Below, piece after piece: positions 54,177 to 62,643 of a stretch of DNA of 64,000 bases. The DNA lies in NCBI GenBank assembly GCA_944381575.1, contig CALWLS010000006.1, positions 1 through 64,000 on the forward strand, written 5' to 3'. Numbering within the stretch: position 1 is the stretch's first letter; each line of letters opens with the position of its first letter. Under the pieces are notes generated by a model. That model made no database searches and was not told the origin of the DNA. It was given only the letters and a program-made list of their open reading frames with translations. The translations under genes were made by a program, and so were the position numbers. The stretch comes from an uncultured Lachnospiraceae bacterium (GTDB lineage Bacteria > Bacillota > Clostridia > Lachnospirales > Lachnospiraceae).

Positions 54177-54860
54177 ATGGACGACAGAGTTCTTATAGTT
54201 GACGACGATAAGGCGGTCATAGAGATCCTTTATAAGGTGATAAGGAGCAACGGCATAGCCTCGGATCTGGCGTCGAGCGGAGAGGAAGCGATAGCCAGGG
54301 CTGAGACCACAAAATATGACTGCATCCTTCTGGACATAAACATGCACGGCATAGACGGCTTTGACGTTATAAAGATACTAAGGGAAAAGAAGATCATGAC
54401 GCCGATAATAGTGGTGAGCGGCAGGAAAGAGGATTATGATCAGATCTTCGGTCTCGATATAGGAGCTGACGACTATGTGACAAAGCCCTTTAATCCGGTG
54501 ACCTTAGGGGCCAAGGTCAAGGCCATCATAAGGCGCAGCAAGGGAAACGCCCACGGGCGGGAGGGCACCATAGAGGCCGGACCCTTTGTGTATAATACAA
54601 GCACCTTAAAGCTGTTCAAAAACGGCACTGAGCTCAACCTGACCTCCAAGGAAAACGCCATGATGAAGATGTTTATAGATAACGTGGGCAGGATATTTCC
54701 AAAGGACATAATCTACGAGATGATATGGGGAGAGAATCAGATAGATGAAAATGTCGTAATGGTATACATAAACAGGCTGAGGCAGAAGATAGAGGACGAC
54801 CCTGCCCATCCGAGCTATATACAGAACGTCAGGGGACTTGGATATAAATTTGTGGTATGA
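54177..54860 (+). CDS. OmpR/PhoB family response regulator
   Basis: 227 residues. The receiver domain has the phospho-acceptor Asp53 (ILLDINMHG), acidic DDD near the start and the VTKPF lysine. The C-terminal winged helix (about 130-227) includes LTSKENAMMKMFID and VYINRLRQKIEDDP. It overlaps the histidine kinase gene by four bases (ATGA). Together they form a two-component system immediately upstream of the SipW operon; regulation of that operon is an inference. Confidence 0.95.
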   Translation: MDDRVLIVDDDKAVIEILYKVIRSNGIASDLASSGEEAIARAETTKYDCILLDINMHGIDGFDVIKILREKKIMTPIIVVSGRKEDYDQIFGLDIGADDYVTKPFNPVTLGAKVKAIIRRSKGNAHGREGTIEAGPFVYNTSTLKLFKNGTELNLTSKENAMMKMFIDNVGRIFPKDIIYEMIWGENQIDENVVMVYINRLRQKIEDDPAHPSYIQNVRGLGYKFVV

Positions 54861-56662
54861 ATTTTAAAGAGTATTTTATGCAGGCCGCGGGCAGGATCAG
54901 GCATGCCAGACATTCCTCCACGATATTCGGACTTGTATTTGTGGCTGCCGGAGTCATATGCTCCATAGGGGCCATAACCATGAGCCGCAGGATTGTGCTG
55001 GAGGAAAAGGAAAAGGCGCTGATCGATTATGCGGCATCCATAGATAAAAATATCGCAAATACTGCCTCCAACATACATGACCAGCTGTACTACATAACGG
55101 CGGACGATGAATTTAAAGAGGCGGAACAGGAGTTTTTTTCAGGAGGAAACAGCTTTCCCCTCTGGCGTATATTAAGAAATAATTCCCTGTGTGATTCAGA
55201 GCTGATAAGCGCGATGATCGGGATGACCCGCGGAAAGGTGCAGATAGCCTCGGACAATGATTTTTACGGGGATATATTTTTCTATGACGATCTGGGAAAT
55301 TACGGCCTTTCTTTCTGCAGGCTCCAGAACGGCAGGTATTATCTGGCCTTTAAGTTTAACGGATATCTGGACGGGATGCAGTATTACGCACTGATGGACT
55401 CAGAGGTGCTCTATGATCAGGTCGTGGTGTCTCCGGTGGAAAAAGGAACCGATAACGTGGTCCTCTACAGTGACGAGCTGGATTTTCTCATAACAAGAGG
55501 AGAGGATTCGACCATAGTAAGGCATGTAAGTGACCTTGAGTACATAGAAGAGCGCGGAATAGCGACGATAATAAAGGAATTAGAAAGCTACAGCATGAAT
55601 GAGCCCGGGACGGACATCGTGGACCGCAGCAGCGGCTCAGGAGTGGCGGAATTTGTCACCATATACCCGGCGTCAATAAGCGATAACGGAGTATTTTCCG
55701 TGGCTTTTATATCGGACTACGACAGTGTCCTTGGGGATATGATGCATATGAATATGCTCATAATCATTGGCATAGGTATATTTTTCCTTGGAGTATTCAG
55801 TTTGATGAACGGACTTGTCGAAGCCGAAAGCGTACATGAGAGGCAGACGACGGAGATAGAGGAGCTGAAGGATAAAAACATACTCATGCAGGGACAGATG
55901 GATGAGATGAGGGAGCTGGAGCATTCACAGCGGCTGGAGCTTTTGGGCTCCATGACCTCAGGTATCTCCCATGAGTTCAATAATCTGCTGACGCCCATCA
56001 TGGCCTACAGCCTTATGTCCCTTGAGATAGTGCCAAAGGACAATACTGAGCTTTCCGATAATATCATTGAGATATACAACGCCTCGAAAAAGGCCAAGGA
56101 CATAGTGAAGCGTATCTCGGAGCTTTCCAAGAAAACGGCTCCGGACACCATGACCTATATAGAGGTGGACAGCTTTATGGATAAGATGCTGTCCCTTACA
56201 AGGGTGTCAAAGCCGGATAATGTGAGCATTATAAGGGAGTATGACGCCAAGGGGTACTGTATTTACGCAAATGAGACCCAGATATCGCAGGTATTTATGA
56301 ATATAATCATAAACGCCTTCAGTCTGATGGATAAGGAAGGGGATATCTTAAGGATACGCACGGGACATTTCAGCTCGAAAAATGAAGTTGTGATAACCAT
56401 AAGCGATACCGGGCCGGGCATACCGAAGGAAAATCTTGAGCATATCTTTGAGCCGTTTTTTACCACAAGGGAGCAGGGCACGGGACTTGGTCTTGCCATA
56501 GCCAAAAATATCATAGATACTCTGGGAGGCTCCATATCCGTAAGATCCCATTTCGGCAGCAGCACCACGTTTATAGTTGCGCTGCCGGCATTTAAACAGG
56601 AAGGAGAGGATCAGGAGGACACTGACAAAGAGAAGGATCAGGAGGCACTGCCGGAGGACTGA
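54857..56662 (+). CDS. Membrane sensor histidine kinase
   Basis: 601 residues. One membrane span near 24-45 and a second near 293-315 enclose a 245-residue extracytoplasmic sensor domain. After a coiled coil (about 318-360) the phospho-acceptor is His372 in SGISHEFNNLLTPI, an NtrB-like H-box. N-box and G-boxes (NIIINAF, DTGPGIP, GTGLGLAIAKNI) follow. An acidic tail ends the protein. It pairs with the preceding response regulator. A terminator follows the gene. Confidence 0.94.
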   Translation: MNFKEYFMQAAGRIRHARHSSTIFGLVFVAAGVICSIGAITMSRRIVLEEKEKALIDYAASIDKNIANTASNIHDQLYYITADDEFKEAEQEFFSGGNSFPLWRILRNNSLCDSELISAMIGMTRGKVQIASDNDFYGDIFFYDDLGNYGLSFCRLQNGRYYLAFKFNGYLDGMQYYALMDSEVLYDQVVVSPVEKGTDNVVLYSDELDFLITRGEDSTIVRHVSDLEYIEERGIATIIKELESYSMNEPGTDIVDRSSGSGVAEFVTIYPASISDNGVFSVAFISDYDSVLGDMMHMNMLIIIGIGIFFLGVFSLMNGLVEAESVHERQTTEIEELKDKNILMQGQMDEMRELEHSQRLELLGSMTSGISHEFNNLLTPIMAYSLMSLEIVPKDNTELSDNIIEIYNASKKAKDIVKRISELSKKTAPDTMTYIEVDSFMDKMLSLTRVSKPDNVSIIREYDAKGYCIYANETQISQVFMNIIINAFSLMDKEGDILRIRTGHFSSKNEVVITISDTGPGIPKENLEHIFEPFFTTREQGTGLGLAIAKNIIDTLGGSISVRSHFGSSTTFIVALPAFKQEGEDQEDTDKEKDQEALPED

Positions 56663-56684
56663 TCTTCCTGGAAACTTTTTGATG

Positions 56685-56722
56685 AACGGGTGCATTTTAT
56701 TCAAAATGCATCCGTTTATTTT
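56685..56722 (+). terminator. Terminator after the histidine kinase
   Basis: AACGGGTGCATTTT (56685-56698) pairs with AAAATGCATCCGTT (56703-56716), followed by TATTTT. Confidence 0.8.
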
Positions 56723-56726
56723 GGTA

Positions 56727-56755
56727 TTGACTGATGCTGCGGCCCAAACTATAAT
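56727..56755 (+). promoter_or_regulatory. Sigma-A promoter of the SipW operon
   Basis: TTGACT (56727-56732), 17 bases, TATAAT (56750-56755), a near-consensus promoter. Transcription should start near 56762, leaving a leader of about 70 bases. Confidence 0.8.
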
Positions 56756-56833: not shown

Positions 56834-58360
56834 ATGAGAGGATATGCGCGTTTTTTTGTGCTGCGTATTTTCCTTGCGGTCGTTATTTTTACTGTTTCAG
56901 GGCTGAAGCTCGCGATATCATCTTTGGCCGGCGACGGTCTTATTGTCGTATACACTGACGAGGGCACGGATAAGATCGCGCTGGACGGGACGGAGCTGTT
57001 TATTGAACGTCCAATGCCTGGATACACTGAAACGGCCGGTATCAAGGTGGTAAATCTGAAAAAGAGCAACGTCTATTACAGGTGCAGTTTGGACAGCAAC
57101 GGCTCCAACGCCTTATACAGATCCCTTGACATGGAGGTATCCGGAAAGGATGGCCTCGTCTATGAGGGAGAGCTTCAAAGCCTATGGTTTAAGGGAGGCC
57201 CCATAGAGCCTGGAAAAAGCGTGGAATTTGACTTAAGGCTGTCGCTTCCGGTGACTGCGGGAAATGAGACCGCCGGCAAAACAGCAGCCTTTAATATTGT
57301 CATGGATTTTGCGGATAATAAGGAGGCGTTTGATGATAATGACGATGCCGGGGAAGATGGTGAAGACGGCGGAGAAGGTGACGGCGGAAAGGATGACGGC
57401 GATGGAGGAACAGGTGACGTCGGTGATAATACGGATCCGGGAAGCGGAAACGGCTCCATGGGAGGCGGAGAGCCCGGCGGGGATAGCCTAAATGGCGGCG
57501 CACAGGGCGGCTCATCCGGCAGCGGATCGTCTGACGGCGGGGCATCCGGCGGAGGCTCACATGGAGGCTCTTCAGGCGGCGGATCATCGGCTGGAGGTTC
57601 AAACGGCGGCTCCGGTTCATCAGGAGGCAGCGGCGGAACAGGTCTTTCAGCGTATGTTCCGGGAGGTGAGGCTCATGGCAGCTTTGGAGGCAGCGGCGTT
57701 TATAAGGACGGAAATGTGATAATAGGCGGAAGCACTGATAAAACGGCAGGCCTGACCTATATCCTGTCTGCTGAAGGCGGTGGAGAGGAACGGGTTTATG
57801 ATGCTCCGGATCCTTCGCTTAAAAAGGGAGTGGATTCCGGAGAGTGGCTTAAGGAGGGCGGCATCTGGAAGTACAGATTCAAAAACGGGAGCTATGCCGC
57901 CGACGGCTTTGCCTTTCTTTATAATCCTTTCACGGAACGTGATGACAGATTCGGATGGTTTTATTTTGACGGAGACGGAAAGCTCATGATCGGATGGATA
58001 AGGACAAAGGGCGATATCTGGTATCACTCCCACGAGACCTCCGACGGCGATCTTGGCGTTATTGAAACGGGCTGGATAACGGAGTCAGAGGACGGAAAGC
58101 TTTATTACGCCGATGAAACAGACGCCAAAATGCTCACAGGCTGGGTAGGCTTTGCAAAGGATATGAGCCGGGATACGGAATATTACTATTTTGCCAAACT
58201 CAGCGACACCTACGGACAGAACTGGTTTTTCAATACCTCCATTGGCCGCTGGATATATGACAGGCTTGGAAAAAGGTCCTATGGATCCATGTACTCAGAT
58301 GAAGTAACTCCGGACGGTTTCCGTGTCGATGCTTCCGGAAGGTGGACGGGGGAGAAATGA
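56834..58360 (+). CDS. Exported TasA/CalY-like protein with Gly/Ser linker and wall-binding repeats
   Basis: 508 residues. A hydrophobic N terminus (8-32) serves as a signal. Residues about 35-160 form a beta domain ending SLPVTAGNETAGKTAAFNIV, resembling the AGN-Q/G-K segment of TasA/camelysin proteins. A long Asp/Gly/Ser linker (about 164-275) is followed by choline-binding-type repeats (GWFYFDGDGKLMIGWI, GWITESEDGKLYYAD, GWVGF) from about 370 to 460. It is probably a surface-attached subunit processed by the SipW-type peptidase, whose gene overlaps its stop (ATGA). No family assignment covers the whole protein. Confidence 0.8.
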   Translation: MRGYARFFVLRIFLAVVIFTVSGLKLAISSLAGDGLIVVYTDEGTDKIALDGTELFIERPMPGYTETAGIKVVNLKKSNVYYRCSLDSNGSNALYRSLDMEVSGKDGLVYEGELQSLWFKGGPIEPGKSVEFDLRLSLPVTAGNETAGKTAAFNIVMDFADNKEAFDDNDDAGEDGEDGGEGDGGKDDGDGGTGDVGDNTDPGSGNGSMGGGEPGGDSLNGGAQGGSSGSGSSDGGASGGGSHGGSSGGGSSAGGSNGGSGSSGGSGGTGLSAYVPGGEAHGSFGGSGVYKDGNVIIGGSTDKTAGLTYILSAEGGGEERVYDAPDPSLKKGVDSGEWLKEGGIWKYRFKNGSYAADGFAFLYNPFTERDDRFGWFYFDGDGKLMIGWIRTKGDIWYHSHETSDGDLGVIETGWITESEDGKLYYADETDAKMLTGWVGFAKDMSRDTEYYYFAKLSDTYGQNWFFNTSIGRWIYDRLGKRSYGSMYSDEVTPDGFRVDASGRWTGEK

Positions 58361-58797
58361 GAAAAGATAAGCCGGGATTTATAAATGCGGCGGTGGATGC
58401 GCTTACGGGGCTGATAGTGACGGCCTCTTTGCTTATTGCAGCAGGATGCATTTTTATAAATATCAGGGAGAGGCTCACGGGTGAGATGGGCTTTTTATTC
58501 GGATATAAGCCTGTATACATAGAAAGCGGTTCCATGGAGCCGGCCATACCGTCGGGGTCCTTTATCATTGTAAAGAAGGCCTCTTTTGATGATGTAAAGG
58601 AAGGGGACGTTATAGTGTTTGAAACGGATGGCGGATATGTTACCCACAGATACATCGGCATAGATGAGGAGGCTCTTAACAGCGGAAGCGAAAGCTATAT
58701 CGTAACAAAGGGAGACGCCAACAGTATTTCGGATCCGGAGCTGCTTGACCCATTAAATATAAGGGGAAAGGCAATCATCAGGGAAACGGCGGACTGA
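58357..58797 (+). CDS. sipW: SipW-type signal peptidase I
   Basis: 146 residues. ATG 58357 overlaps the previous stop. A membrane span (13-35) is followed by the catalytic box ESGSMEPAIPSGS with nucleophile Ser59, and YVTHRYIG with His97 in the place where ordinary bacterial signal peptidases have Lys. Ser/His is the ER/archaeal-like SipW class, which in Bacillus processes the biofilm proteins TasA and TapA. The neighbouring genes encode exported proteins with AxA-YTD-type N termini, the likely substrates. Confidence 0.93.
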   Translation: MRKDKPGFINAAVDALTGLIVTASLLIAAGCIFINIRERLTGEMGFLFGYKPVYIESGSMEPAIPSGSFIIVKKASFDDVKEGDVIVFETDGGYVTHRYIGIDEEALNSGSESYIVTKGDANSISDPELLDPLNIRGKAIIRETAD

Positions 58798-58818
58798 AAT
58801 GACAGGAGATCAGCACAG

Positions 58819-59472
58819 ATGACAGGAAATATAAGGTTAAAAATTAAAATAACCATGCTCTGCATTGCAGCAGTCATGGCTGCGGCAACGGTTTCATCGG
58901 CTTTCTGGACGGACAGGATAGAAATGGAGCAGGAAATAAAGGCATATGACATAGGTATAGATTATGAGGATGAAAGCCTGAACGGTATTTCAGAGAGTCC
59001 CTATATCCCGGGAGACATAAAGGGATTCTCATTTGCGGTAATTAATTCAGGAGACATTTCGGTGGATATAAAACCGGTGATCAGCATTACGGCCTCAAAG
59101 GATATGATACCGGGATGCTCAGGCTTTATCATAACTGACGCTGGGGGAGAGGAGATATCGGGATATGAGAAAAAATATATCGATGAAAACGGTGAGGAGC
59201 TCAGCAAGGAGGATATAGAGGAAGGTAAAGCTTACAGGACGCTGATATATACGAAAGCTGATGAAGAAGTGCTTGCCGGAAGCAGCCAGAGAGACGAAAG
59301 CATAGGGGAGCTGGAAACAAGACGGGATTACTCCTACGGTCTTAAGCTGCTTGAGGACACGGATAATTCATTTGCCGGAGCGGAAGCAGTCATTGATATA
59401 AGCACCTACGCCATACAGCACAGGAACAGGGAAGCTTCCGGAGAATGGATAAGCATAGTGGAGGAAAGATGA
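58819..59472 (+). CDS. SipW-type substrate, camelysin/TasA-like exported protein
   Basis: 217 residues. The N terminus has KIKITMLCIAAVMAAATVSS then AFWTDRIE, the SipW-type cleavage context (compare AYFTD in TasA/CalY). SPYIPGDIKGFSFAVINSGD and IKPVISI form the Ig-like strand pattern seen in CalY-family proteins. It ends without an anchor. AGGAG lies about ten bases before the ATG. Its stop overlaps the next start (ATGA). A fibre or matrix subunit is possible. Confidence 0.78.
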   Translation: MTGNIRLKIKITMLCIAAVMAAATVSSAFWTDRIEMEQEIKAYDIGIDYEDESLNGISESPYIPGDIKGFSFAVINSGDISVDIKPVISITASKDMIPGCSGFIITDAGGEEISGYEKKYIDENGEELSKEDIEEGKAYRTLIYTKADEEVLAGSSQRDESIGELETRRDYSYGLKLLEDTDNSFAGAEAVIDISTYAIQHRNREASGEWISIVEER

Positions 59473-60392
59473 AAAAAATATCATGGATAGCCGTCCCGGT
59501 CCTGCTTATAACCGCTCTTTTTGTAACGGCAGCCTCCGCGTATTACACGGACATAAAGGAAAGCTCCGTGACGGTAAAGGCGGCGTATACGGGATTTTCA
59601 GGTGGCGGCGGAGGCATAACGGTGGATTCCTCGGATCAGGATGACAGGTTCGTTCCGATAGGGGAAAACGAAAGCTTTATCATAAAGTGTTCCGCGGTCT
59701 ATGGAGGAGATGTGGAAGCTTTAGCAGTGGCAAGACTTAAGCTTTTCATAGGAAATTTCATGGAGGGAGACAGGATAAAAGTATCTGATGGGGAAACAGA
59801 AGCCGTATTGGAGGCCTCGGAGGGAGAGATATTCTCTGCCCCCATAAAGCTCAGCCCTGGAGATATCCTTGAAAAGACATACACTGTTACGGTTGAAAGT
59901 CATGCATCTGAAGAACCCCTTATCTTCGATCATGAATTCACCGTAGCAAGTACGCAGTATTCCGGAAATGAGGAGCTTATCCCGGGTGAAAAGGATCCGG
60001 ATGAGATATACGAAGATATAGAAAAGGGGGAGACCGAGGGCTTTGGAGAGGTATCAGATCCTGAGGGTAACAGAGACCCGGAGGGAGAGACTGGCACAGT
60101 CAAAAGAACGGCAGTTAAGTTCATACCTGAGATAACGGATGGCTTTACGGACAAAAATATCTTCAGATGGTACGCGTTTTATGATGATACAAGTGAAAAA
60201 GAGATATCGAATGGAGAAAATTTAGATCTTATACTAAATAAATCCAATATCAGAGATGGATTATTTCTTAGATTCGAGGTGGAAAATGAAGCGGGAGCTG
60301 TCAGCTCTAAGGTCTACCGCATCCTGTTTACTGAAGATGGGATATCGGTAGAAGAGGCCGGTGAGACAGCGGAAAGTGAGGAGAAATCATGA
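59469..60392 (+). CDS. Second SipW-type exported protein
   Basis: ATG 59469 overlaps the previous stop; 307 residues. The signal MKKISWIAVPVLLITALFVT and ASAYYTDIKE again show the SipW-type cleavage context. A Gly-rich turn (SGGGGG) precedes beta-rich domains; an acidic Glu/Gly/Asp/Pro-rich linker lies at about 175-215, followed by another beta domain (about 220-290) and a Glu-rich tail. No wall anchor is seen. No family recognised beyond the signal type. Confidence 0.75.
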   Translation: MKKISWIAVPVLLITALFVTAASAYYTDIKESSVTVKAAYTGFSGGGGGITVDSSDQDDRFVPIGENESFIIKCSAVYGGDVEALAVARLKLFIGNFMEGDRIKVSDGETEAVLEASEGEIFSAPIKLSPGDILEKTYTVTVESHASEEPLIFDHEFTVASTQYSGNEELIPGEKDPDEIYEDIEKGETEGFGEVSDPEGNRDPEGETGTVKRTAVKFIPEITDGFTDKNIFRWYAFYDDTSEKEISNGENLDLILNKSNIRDGLFLRFEVENEAGAVSSKVYRILFTEDGISVEEAGETAESEEKS

Positions 60393-61441
60393 AGAAAGGG
60401 AGACAACTGAAGAAAGCCTTTTGGATGCCGGCACTTTTGGGAAGCTTGGCGTTTTTTGCAGCAGCTGTATCAGCTTTTGACGTCATGGCCGCGCCTTCAG
60501 GGAGCGGAAGCGCATCGGATCCCTATACCGGGAGCGCGGCGGCAGGGGATGTGCTTAAAGCAGGGGCATATATTAAAAATCTGACGACTAAGGACGGAGG
60601 GAGGATCAGCCTTAAGAGAGAATATAAGCCGAAGGAATATGGGGTCCTGCTTGAGGCTTCAGGAGGAGGATTTCCGGACGGCGCACTGCAAAAGAAGCTT
60701 AAATTAAGCTATGGCAGCGACATGCTCAAGGCATTTGAAGAAGCAGGAAACACTATACCGGAAGCGGAAAATGCAGAGTTTGCCGGCTGGTACATTAAGG
60801 GCAACCATGAGTACGGTACAACGGACACATACGGGGCCATCCATGCCGGAGATATAGGAAAAGAAGTTATTGGAGAGGGCGACCTGTTCCTTATAGCGCC
60901 GGATGATGAGGAGGACAGGAGAAACGCGGATATAGACGGATCAGGTAATGTACGGATAAGGGCCCTGTGGCTTAAAAAACCATCTGAGGAAACTGACGGG
61001 ACCGAGGCCGACGACACGGCCGCGGAGGACAATACGGCGGGGCTTGGTTCCTGGGATCCTGATAACGCTAAAAATCATGCCATAGAATATCTGAATGACT
61101 ATCCGGATAAGGAGAGCTACGCCCTTAAGTTTGGAAGGACAAAATACAGGTACGGGCAGGTAAGGCTCTGTGCGGAAACAAGCCTTGCTGAAAATTATGT
61201 ATGGTATATCAAAAAAGCAGGCGATGACAGTTTCAGTCCTATCGATGAGTCAGGACCGGAGCTTAAGCTTGAGGGGCTTACGAGAGAGTATAACGGGGCT
61301 AAAGTAAAATGCGAGGTAGATATAGGAGACGGAGGCGGCGGTACAGGCCGTCTTACCTACGAGACCGATATAACAGTTTACCATCTTCCCGAGATAACAG
61401 GGGTGAGGGTAAGGATGAATGATGAAGAGGTAAGGCTATGA
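60389..61441 (+). CDS. Third exported protein of the SipW operon
   Basis: 350 residues. A signal peptide (about 8-33, ending VMAAP) opens the protein. A Ser/Gly/Ala-rich segment, a region with AEFAGWYIKGN, an Asp/Glu-rich linker (about 185-220) and a C-terminal Ig-like domain with cysteine (VRLCAET, VKCEVDIG) follow. Overlaps both neighbours by four bases (ATGA). No family recognised; probably a surface protein. Confidence 0.7.
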   Translation: MKKGRQLKKAFWMPALLGSLAFFAAAVSAFDVMAAPSGSGSASDPYTGSAAAGDVLKAGAYIKNLTTKDGGRISLKREYKPKEYGVLLEASGGGFPDGALQKKLKLSYGSDMLKAFEEAGNTIPEAENAEFAGWYIKGNHEYGTTDTYGAIHAGDIGKEVIGEGDLFLIAPDDEEDRRNADIDGSGNVRIRALWLKKPSEETDGTEADDTAAEDNTAGLGSWDPDNAKNHAIEYLNDYPDKESYALKFGRTKYRYGQVRLCAETSLAENYVWYIKKAGDDSFSPIDESGPELKLEGLTREYNGAKVKCEVDIGDGGGGTGRLTYETDITVYHLPEITGVRVRMNDEEVRL

Positions 61442-62643
61442 GATCAGGCAGACTTTTAAATCTTGCCGCGATAATAGCGACAGTTTTATTTACCGCGGCG
61501 GGCATCACAGGAATAGCCGGAGCGGTACCGGAAAGCGGCCTGTCTGATTTGGAGACCCGTAACGGAAGCGGATCTTCATGCACGGCTACCATGGACTGCT
61601 ATGTGGACGAGATAAAAAAGGCGACGGACAGCTGCTTTACTGAGGCAGATAATGCAGATAATGTTGAGGATGCGGTAAATGACGGTGATGACATGACGGA
61701 GCATGCCGCGATAGAAAAGGTTCCCTCCATGAATGCAGCCGGAGGTTTGGATAACGGACAGATATCTCTTTTAGCGGGAGGCTACTGCAGTTGGAGGAGT
61801 AACAGTTGGTCGGCATCCTATAACGGAAGCAATCTTATTTTTTCCTTTAACGTGGAGTTTTACGCCAACGGCAATTCCAATGTGAGCTATTATCCGAGAT
61901 ACACCTTTGGGTACAGCGAATCCAGCAATATGCCGAGCAATATCCTCGACTGTACCTCGACCTCTAATGACGCGTCAAAGGTAAGATCCTCCTGCGGGAC
62001 CATCAGCTTTTCCGAATATGTGAGGAACAGGGGCTTAAGCGGAGAGCGTTACCTTAAAATGGTGGGTACCATAACGGTGGATCCGGATTATGTGGATAAT
62101 TTTACCGGAGGCAGGTTCAGATCCGTAGGAGGAGGCTGGGGCGATGACTGGATGGCCTATGACGCTTCCAACATAACGGTTTCTAATTTTGAGACGGCCT
62201 CAAAGCAGGCCCAGTGCGGGCATGTATCTTGGAGCTATACCTCAAACGGGGCGGGAGGACATAAGGCTGTGTGCAGTTCCTGCGGCTATCAGAAAAACGA
62301 AAGTCACAGCATGTCCGGCGGGAAATGCTCGAAATGCGGATATGTGAGCAATATCAGCCTCACAATAAGATATGTCATGACCGGAAGGACAGAAACAGAG
62401 ACCATACAGATAGCGCCGGGAGCTTCATACCAGCCAAAGTCATTTACGGGATACCGCAAACCGGCAGGCATTACGGCTCCGCAGTCAGATAAGACCATCG
62501 ATATAGTAATGGTACCGATAGTGTATACGCTGACTGACGGAGAGTATACCTACAGTATAAAATATGACGAGAGCTTTCAGCTTCCGGTTAAAGAACCTAA
62601 AGGCTATGAACATACGGCTTACAGAGTGGAGGGCGTATCGTAG
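61438..62643 (+). CDS. Fourth SipW-operon exported protein, probably truncated at 3' end
   Basis: 401 residues. A signal peptide (about 8-30, [10 protein letters not shown]) leads into an acidic segment and a beta domain (about 115-255). A zinc-ribbon-like segment follows with CGHVSW, CSSCGYQ and CSKCGY, then [18 protein letters not shown] and the start of a repeat-type domain. The frame ends [12 protein letters not shown] inside the 3' end of the convergent uvrB gene (overlap 62619-62643), without completing the last domain. It is therefore likely cut by a rearrangement; alternatively a short natural end. Confidence 0.68.

What the first reader, a model, noticed from the sequence alone, without database searches (positions are those of the whole stretch)
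56834..62643. SipW-centred operon encoding five exported proteins, a candidate matrix or fibre system
One Ser/His (SipW-type) signal peptidase gene sits among five exported-protein genes. Four of the five junctions are ATGA overlaps, and a near-consensus promoter precedes the operon. Two proteins carry SipW-type AFWTD/AYYTD cleavage contexts and the first has a TasA/CalY-like AGN segment plus wall-binding repeats. Established knowledge: SipW processes TasA and TapA in Bacillus biofilms. The gene set here does not match that operon beyond the peptidase and signal type, so it may be an unrecognised surface assembly.
Basis: partly seen in the sequence, partly recalled or inferred. Interest (0 to 1): 0.72.

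Follow-up and report, generated by a model that had tools for sequence, protein, structure and literature searches.

The report
Wall-anchored SipW-dependent surface fibre operon
A six-gene operon of a gut Lachnospiraceae bacterium probably builds a protein fibre on the cell surface, related in outline to the biofilm fibres of Bacillus, but fixed to the wall by a protein of its own and carrying extra adhesive-looking parts; none of this has been tested at the bench.

Summary
In detail: six + strand genes (56834-62643), 4 of 5 junctions ATGA, a Ser/His SipW-type peptidase and five exported proteins. The operon is inherited: 13 of 25 genomes of the genus hold it (4 cut by contig ends), 12 of these seen beside convergent uvrB, although g3-g6 share only 21-47% identity with the window's. 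SipW-type cleavage motifs occur in 11 of 11 g3 and 9 of 9 g4 orthologues, in 0 of 9 g5 and 0 of 9 g6. After signal removal the N-termini of g3 and g4 are related, and so are g1's N-domain and g3. Best reading: g3 a TasA-like fibre subunit, g4 a TapA-like starter, g1 the wall anchor, g5 (InlB repeat, Ig-like) and g6 (Cys/His cluster) accessory subunits. In other species of the genus, g1-, g4-, g5- or g6-like genes recur around a different SipW-substrate family, so the fibre subunit looks exchangeable. TasA membership is unsettled: Pfam, PDB-sequence and fold searches were weak or negative. New variant of a known kind; function inferred, not shown.

The parts
56681..56720 (+). terminator-like hairpin between the histidine kinase gene and the operon
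   Evidence: 18 pairs followed by T-rich tail
56727..56755 (+). candidate promoter TTGACT-17-TATAAT
   Evidence: 11 of 12 consensus positions, best site in the 9 kb scanned; number of sites not above shuffles
56834..58360 (+). g1: ordinary (AxA-like) signal peptide, TasA-like N-domain (about residues 32-165), Gly/Ser/Asp linker, C-terminal choline-binding-type wall-binding module (about residues 325-505)
   Evidence: N-domain related to g3 by profile comparison; C-module Choline_bind_3 in 10 of 12 family members, window copy weak; g1 profile matches, in the rows shown mostly its C-terminal columns, in 25 of 25 genomes of the genus
58357..58797 (+). SipW-type signal peptidase, Ser/His dyad, 146 aa
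   Evidence: TIGR02228 82.7 bits (over cut-off), NF046067 SipW 57.5 bits (below its cut-off of 190); dyad in 11 of 11 orthologues
58819..59472 (+). g3: SipW-type signal, candidate major TasA-like fibre subunit
   Evidence: AFWTD; motif in 11 of 11 orthologues; PF12389 in 5 of 11 orthologues, not in the window's own copy; AlphaFold beta-sandwich, pLDDT 74.9
59469..60392 (+). g4: SipW-type signal, low-confidence mature N-terminus, two predicted beta-sandwich domains; candidate TapA-like starter
   Evidence: AYYTD; motif in 9 of 9 orthologues; mature N-part aligns with that of g3; model
60389..61441 (+). g5: ordinary signal peptide, InlB/Listeria-Bacteroides repeat, C-terminal Ig-like domain
   Evidence: PF09479 in 7 of 9 orthologues, best 2.4e-7, not in the window's own copy; PDB internalin B repeat E 0.0062; Ig-like assignment read by eye from the alignment
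61438..62643 (+). g6: ordinary signal peptide, variable N-part, invariant Cys/His cluster (C260 H262 H275 C279 C282 H290 C297 C300), C-terminal repeat-like region
   Evidence: invariant in 9 of 9 orthologues; overlaps the 3' end of convergent uvrB by 25 nt
54177..54860 (+). OmpR-type response regulator, possible regulator of the operon
   Evidence: PF00072 and PF00486; beside the operon here and in L049, not in L041, L044 or L050; the other six relatives' loci hold under 1.6 kb upstream and cannot tell
54857..56662 (+). sensor histidine kinase, possible regulator of the operon
   Evidence: PF02518; same limited linkage

Best explanation
The operon makes a SipW-dependent surface fibre anchored without covalent linkage to the cell wall. 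Shown or well supported by sequence: the six genes are an inherited unit; SipW has the Ser/His dyad; only g3 and g4 carry the SipW-type cleavage context with an aromatic P2' residue; g3, g4 and g1 share related segments; g1 ends in a wall-binding-type module common in the genus. Inferred: SipW cleaves g3 and g4 and frees N-termini that act as donor strands. g3 polymerises by passing its N-terminal strand into the next subunit. g4, which has a related N-terminus but apparently complete domains, starts the fibre as TapA does. g1, a g3-like domain whose similarity to g3 begins only after that N-terminal segment, caps the wall end and holds the fibre through its repeats. g5 and g6 decorate the fibre or its tip and bind other cells, polysaccharide or surfaces.
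For: Order g1-sipW-g3-g4-g5-g6 with convergent uvrB in the window and 8 of 8 contig-complete relatives; 13 of 25 genus genomes hold it wholly or contig-cut. Signal motif in 11 of 11 g3, 9 of 9 g4, 0 of 9 g5, 0 of 9 g6; in g1 2 of 12, both past the signal peptide. Mature g3 against the g4 N-part: hhalign score 34.7 over 69 columns from residue 1 of both, 0 of 60 column shuffles as high (highest 19.7). g1 N-domain against mature g3: score 34.0 over 113 columns, 0 of 60 (highest 17.0). Control pairs with g5 and g6 gave probabilities of 0.2-1.3%. The g1 profile matches in 25 of 25 genomes, 14 times in this one. Two type II and two type III loci in the same genus hold sipW, a SipW-type substrate of another family and g1-, g4-, g5- or g6-like genes. 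E. coli signal peptidase cleaves poorly when P2' is aromatic, and TasA has Phe there (PMC10269814, start of abstract seen). TasA and TapA donor strands: PMC9674648 and PMC10151520 (passages).
Against: The window's own g3 has no PF12389 hit. Without signal peptides only 2 of the 10 g3 orthologues scanned match PF12389, at E 0.011 and 0.017. The g3 profile finds no PDB chain at E up to 10, although a TasA fibre is in the PDB. Foldseek of the g3 model lists generic beta-sandwiches, the TasA fibre only at rank 17 with TMq 0.35; g4 hits are generic. With all of g4 instead of its N-part the g3-g4 comparison falls to 25.5% probability, score 31.5 against a shuffle maximum of 28.9; g1 against g4 is weak, 5.6-7.4%. 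One relative (G022) has a g1-g4-g5-g6-like cluster but no SipW match in its genome. In 6 of 25 genomes of the genus I saw no g1-like gene set of this kind. Donor-strand exchange, polymerisation and wall binding are untested.
Confidence: 0.55

Rival explanations
1. A SipW-dependent surface adhesin complex that is not a fibre: g1 anchors a fixed, stoichiometric complex of g3, g4, g5 and g6 on the wall.
For: Ig-like, InlB-repeat and Cys/His modules suit adhesive surface proteins; the fold searches give no specific fibre match; the g4 list is headed by WxLIP, part of another Gram-positive surface system (TMq only 0.20, so little weight).
Against: Two SipW-type substrates with related mature N-termini and low-confidence N-termini of g3 and g4 in the models are what strand exchange would need, but do not prove it.
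Confidence: 0.27
2. A BsaA-type matrix polymer as in C. perfringens sipW-bsaABCRSD: secreted SDS-resistant polymer in the medium, g1/g5/g6 being BsaB/C/D-like helpers, with the upstream two-component pair acting like BsaRS.
For: Same combination of SipW, SipW substrate, several exported proteins and a neighbouring two-component system (PMC7395162); weak TIGR04090 matches in 2 of 11 g3 orthologues, in the type II substrates and in one protein of L132.
Against: TIGR04090 is not matched by the window protein, and the matches of the type II and L132 proteins are below its cut-off of 60 bits; the authors judge that BsaA does not bind tightly to walls, whereas g1 carries a wall-binding-type module; the two-component genes adjoin the operon in only 2 of the 5 loci that can tell.
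Confidence: 0.13
3. A chance cluster of exported-protein genes around a housekeeping signal peptidase.
For: Short gaps and ATGA overlaps are common in operons generally (recalled).
Against: Same six-gene order in 9 contig-complete genomes with g3-g6 at 21-47% identity, and recurrence of the parts in other arrangements.
Confidence: 0.02

Closest known systems
Bacillus subtilis tapA-sipW-tasA
   Same: Dedicated SipW peptidase inside the operon; two substrates with aromatic cleavage context; the two mature N-termini are alike; one subunit with apparently complete domains as candidate starter
   Different: No TapA-family match above cut-off; g3 only marginally in PF12389; wall-anchored third protein g1 and accessory g5 and g6 have no counterpart in that three-gene operon
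Clostridium perfringens sipW-bsaABCRSD
   Same: SipW, SipW-dependent polymer subunit, several accessory exported proteins, two-component regulator genes nearby
   Different: g3 is not a BsaA by TIGR04090; regulator genes are upstream behind a terminator-like hairpin and adjoin the operon in 2 of 5 loci that can tell; wall-binding-type module present
Bacillus cereus sipW-tasA, calY, capP
   Same: Sortase-independent filaments with two TasA-type proteins and a helper that localises to the wall (abstract and passages seen)
   Different: CapP has a DUF4047 motif and a repetitive C-domain; here the wall-binding protein carries a g3-like domain and choline-binding-type repeats
Choline-binding surface proteins
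   Same: C-terminal module of g1 (Choline_bind_3)
   Different: Ligand not known; N-domain related to g3

Membership tests
SipW (ER-type, Ser/His signal peptidase I) | Ser nucleophile in the SME box and His instead of Lys as base (roles recalled) | tested here: met
   11 of 11 orthologues, constant spacing
SipW (ER-type, Ser/His signal peptidase I) | match to the Bacillus SipW model above cut-off | tested here: not met
   NF046067 57.5 bits, cut-off 190; the wider TIGR02228 is passed, 82.7 against 51.85. It works like SipW; it is not the Bacillus equivalog
TasA/camelysin (PF12389) | profile match above cut-off | tested here: inconclusive
   window copy none; 5 of 11 orthologues at E<=1, best 7.9e-6; one (G015) over cut-off with 24.2 bits; 2 of 10 mature forms at E 0.011-0.017, both below cut-off
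TasA/camelysin (PF12389) | TasA jelly-roll fold | tested here: inconclusive
   beta-sandwich, TasA fibre 8aur_A rank 17, probability 0.96, TMq 0.35, among many unrelated sandwiches
TasA/camelysin (PF12389) | filament by donor-strand exchange | not testable with these tools
   needs protein
TapA (TIGR04087) | profile match above cut-off | tested here: not met
   window copy 11.4 bits against 80, residues 3-40 only; 1 of 9 members
BsaA (TIGR04090) | profile match above cut-off | tested here: not met
   2 of 11 g3 orthologues at E<=1, best E 0.015; window copy none
Choline-binding surface proteins | Choline_bind repeats | tested here: met
   10 of 12 g1-family members, best 2.8e-11; window copy itself weak, 14.9 bits against cut-off 27, so met for the family, marginal for this copy
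Sortase-assembled pilus | LPXTG-type sorting signal at C-terminus | tested here: not met
   none in the six translations (read by eye); sortase genes not searched for

The most novel reading that the evidence does not exclude
This genus has a modular, wall-anchored SipW fibre platform. A wall anchor with a g3-like domain (g1) and Ig-like, InlB-repeat and g6-type accessory proteins recur, while the polymerising SipW substrate is exchanged between a TasA-like family (type I, g3) and a second family shared by types II and III that is not detectably related to g3 and leans towards BsaA; g1 is the acceptor end of the fibre and g4 its starter, giving a fibre with two specialised ends.
Probability: 0.3. 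Interest if true: 0.68.

Novelty: new variant of a known kind. Interest (0 to 1): 0.5.

Why it matters
TasA-type fibres have, to my knowledge (recalled), been studied mainly in Bacillus, and how such a fibre is held at the wall and ended is not settled there. An operon with a wall-binding, g3-like protein next to a TasA-like and a TapA-like substrate would make that directly testable with six small genes, and would extend SipW-dependent fibres to anaerobic gut Lachnospiraceae. Four of the ten named relatives' record titles name a ruminant gut compartment. A held-library search for SipW with Lachnospiraceae found one paper, a general surfaceome review by its title (listing only).

Tried and rejected
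Pfam and NCBIfam on the single window proteins named little beyond SipW, the two-component pair and choline-binding-type matches in g1. PDB sequence searches gave nothing for g3, signal-region noise for g4, internalin B repeats for g5, and weak zinc-finger and ribosomal matches for g6. A Peptidase_M73 filing for g3 was weakened by my own control: much of the full-length match goes with the signal peptide (10 of the 11 orthologues scanned). The 93% g3-g4 profile match is inflated by the signal peptide; after removing it the figure is 58.7% (g4 N-part) or 25.5% (whole g4). The second domain of g4 and the Ig-like domain of g5 are not detectably related (probability 0.9%, 1 of 60 shuffles as high). 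The type II and III substrates are not detectably related to g3 (0.2% and 1.3%; 24 and 1 of 40 shuffles as high). A search for TafF in papers listed nothing on such a fimbria by title among the 12 of 76 shown. A UvrB tree of 23 of the 25 genomes (G004 and G012 left out: no uvrB in hand for them then) shows the 11 carriers in it in two separated groups with non-carriers between; several nodes have low support, so ancestral presence with losses is favoured by the shared site but not proven.

Left out before counts: the g4, g5 and g6 alignments hold 9 of the 13 type I carriers (G004, G007, G010 and G012 left out as contig-cut); the g3 and SipW sets hold 11 (without G007 and G010). Foldseek lists show the top 50 of 1684 and of 1871 matches. 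The non-type-I loci were fetched because a g1-like or SipW match lay there, so their tally is not an unbiased sample. In one search not all matches were listed.
Full report
What is there. Six genes on the + strand fill 56834-62643: g1, sipW, g3, g4, g5, g6. Four of five junctions are ATGA overlaps; sipW/g3 is 21 nt. An 11-of-12 promoter match lies at 56727-56755, just behind an 18-pair terminator-like hairpin that follows the upstream response-regulator/histidine-kinase pair. g6 ends 25 nt inside the 3' end of convergent uvrB. The genome has 2.0 Mb in 18 contigs and holds one match to this SipW at E 0.001.

Conservation. In 61 genomes (this one and 60 relatives) g3 was found in 11, this one included, all in the same genus. 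Wider regions show g1-sipW-g3-g4-g5-g6 followed by convergent uvrB in 8 relatives besides the window. Four more genomes hold pieces cut by contig ends: G004 (two contigs, the second with g6 and uvrB), G010 (g4-g5-g6 beside uvrB), G007 (g6 beside uvrB) and G012 (g1-sipW-g3, no uvrB on its 4.3-kb contig). That makes 13 of 25 genomes of the genus, 12 of them seen beside uvrB. In the contig-complete loci, reading the longest open frames, the longest gap between neighbouring genes is 107 nt. Identity to the window proteins is 34-47% for g3, 23-37% for g4, 31-39% for g5 and 21-41% for g6, 34-44% for g1 orthologues. A g3 profile over 397 family genomes found only the window strongly (297.6 bits); five others scored 20-28 bits. 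The one scan of named genomes returned 10 loci: nine titled Lachnospiraceae and one Eubacteriales, all MAGs, and the same DNA as ten of the unnamed relatives. The C-terminal end of g6 is conserved in 9 of 9, so g6 is not a truncated gene.

The parts. SipW carries the Ser and His in 11 of 11 orthologues. The SipW-type motif, with an aromatic residue at P2', is in 11 of 11 g3 and 9 of 9 g4 proteins (one g4 has AYYEA), in 0 of 9 g5 and 0 of 9 g6; the 2 of 12 g1 hits lie at residues 55 and 60, past the signal peptide; beyond residue 85 there are 2 hits in 14,082 residues. E. coli signal peptidase is reported to cleave poorly when P2' is aromatic, as in TasA (PMC10269814; only the start of the abstract was seen). 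g1 has an ordinary signal peptide, an N-domain, a low-complexity linker and a choline-binding-type module. A g1 profile matches in 25 of 25 genomes of the genus, 14 times in this one, in the rows shown mostly over its C-terminal columns and often in much longer frames. g5 has a Listeria-Bacteroides repeat in 7 of 9 orthologues. g6 has eight invariant Cys/His; zinc binding is my inference. Over 397 family genomes the g6 profile found only this genome strongly; eight others scored 19-33 bits, over short stretches.

Relations among the parts. Profile comparison after removal of signal peptides aligns mature g3 and the g4 N-part (first 170 residues, my cut) from residue 1 over 69 columns: score 34.7, 0 of 60 shuffles as high. 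With whole g4 the score is 31.5 against a shuffle maximum of 28.9. The g1 N-domain aligns with mature g3 over 113 columns starting at residue 16 of both: score 34.0, 0 of 60. g1 against the g4 N-part is weaker: 23.3, 0 of 60, probability 7.4% (5.6%). Comparisons with g5 and g6 are at background, though g3 against the g5 N-part (18.2) just exceeded its shuffles (18.0) at 0.9% probability. In B. subtilis TapA's N-terminal residues resemble the TasA donor strand and TapA is proposed to start the fibre (PMC9674648 and PMC10151520, passages); the g3/g4 relation repeats that pattern.

Folds. The g3 model (11 sequences, pLDDT 74.9, pTM 0.68) is a beta-sandwich with residues 25-42 of low confidence. 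The g4 model (9 sequences, pLDDT 78.1, pTM 0.73) has a low-confidence N-terminus and two sandwiches. Foldseek lists many unrelated sandwiches; the TasA fibre is rank 17 for g3 and there is nothing specific for g4 in the 50 rows shown. The folds are compatible with TasA/TapA but do not identify them. g1, g5 and g6 were not modelled.

Other arrangements in the genus. L058 (G011) and L077 (G020) have an InlB-repeat protein with an aromatic cleavage context (by eye), a g6-like protein, sipW and a SipW-motif substrate with weak BsaA similarity (E 0.001 and 0.0019, below cut-off); L058 continues into a g1-like protein, L077 ends before it. L129 (G018) and L130 (G014) have sipW, a substrate with YAAFS (SipW-like by eye; my motif did not flag it and no SipW family matched it in either locus), a g1-like protein, a short protein matching only g4's second domain, g5 (E 1e-78 and 8.5e-79) and a protein in the g6 position that my g6 profile did not match. 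The type II and type III substrates are one family: blastp E down to 1e-18, hhalign 97.7%, score 80.5 against a maximum of 18.8 in 40 shuffles. They are not detectably related to g3, and are distantly related (E 2e-4 to 0.99 by pair) to a protein of L132 that matches TIGR04090 at E 8e-6, below cut-off. L132 (G008) has sipW, two SipW-signal proteins and a g1-like N-domain at its contig end. L131 (G022) has g1-, g4-, g5- and g6-like genes without sipW, and no SipW match was found in that genome. So of the five g1-like loci outside type I that I looked at (L058, L129, L130, L131, L132), four have sipW. L051 (G013) has a lone sipW beside uvrB. In the remaining five genomes (G005, G006, G016, G017, G021) I saw no such set; G016 has a SipW match elsewhere.

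Mechanism. I read the operon as a wall-anchored SipW-dependent fibre: g3 the repeating subunit, g4 the starter, g1 the wall end, g5 and g6 accessory adhesive subunits. The cleavage contexts and the gene linkage are well supported by sequence. Cleavage itself, polymerisation, strand exchange, the order of subunits and adhesion are inference. The nearest described systems are B. subtilis tapA-sipW-tasA, B. cereus TasA/CalY/CapP (PMC13082335, abstract and passages) and C. perfringens sipW-bsaABCRSD (PMC7395162, passages and Discussion). The last needs its own two-component pair for expression; here such a pair lies upstream in the window and in L049, not in L041, L044 or L050, and the other relatives' loci hold too little upstream DNA to tell, so the regulatory parallel is a lead, not a finding.

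Not in print, as far as searched: SipW with Lachnospiraceae gave 1 paper; SipW, signal peptidase and Clostridium gave 15, all listed, of which the C. perfringens paper is the one on such an operon by title and abstract start; SipW, TasA, camelysin, Firmicutes (three of four) gave 36, 20 listed; TasA, Lachnospiraceae, signal peptidase (two of three) gave 259, 15 listed, none on such a Lachnospiraceae operon by title. The library holds open-licence papers only.

Changed after checking: identity range, the uvrB count (12 of 13), the two-component linkage (2 of 5 loci that can tell), and the type III substrate, first called BsaA-like, now placed in one family with type II.

Noticed in passing
54177-56662: OmpR-type response regulator and sensor kinase directly upstream; kept beside the operon in L049, absent there in L041, L044 and L050. 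Recalls BsaRS of C. perfringens.
   Followed up: partly
L131:4592-9523: G022 has a g1-g4-g5-g6-like cluster without sipW, and no SipW match was found in its genome; its g4 still has an aromatic context (AYFRE). Which peptidase would cleave it is unexplained.
   Followed up: partly
L051:12740-13288: G013 keeps a lone sipW beside uvrB, with none of the other five genes detected on that contig: possible remnant of the operon.
   Followed up: partly
L129:3890-9616 and L130:4261-10166: Type III arrangement: sipW, substrate, g1-like, short g4-like, g5, g6-position protein; a 536/564-aa protein that begins like a membrane sensor follows the operon in both, not analysed.
   Followed up: partly
62619-62643: g6 and uvrB overlap tail to tail by 25 nt; the uvrB neighbourhood is kept in the 12 carriers whose contigs show it.
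   Followed up: no
L056:348-4618: G018 has another sipW locus with two SipW-signal proteins that match PF12389 (one over, one under the cut-off) and a protein with an LPXTG-like end (PKTGD), i.e. perhaps a sortase-type variant.
   Followed up: no
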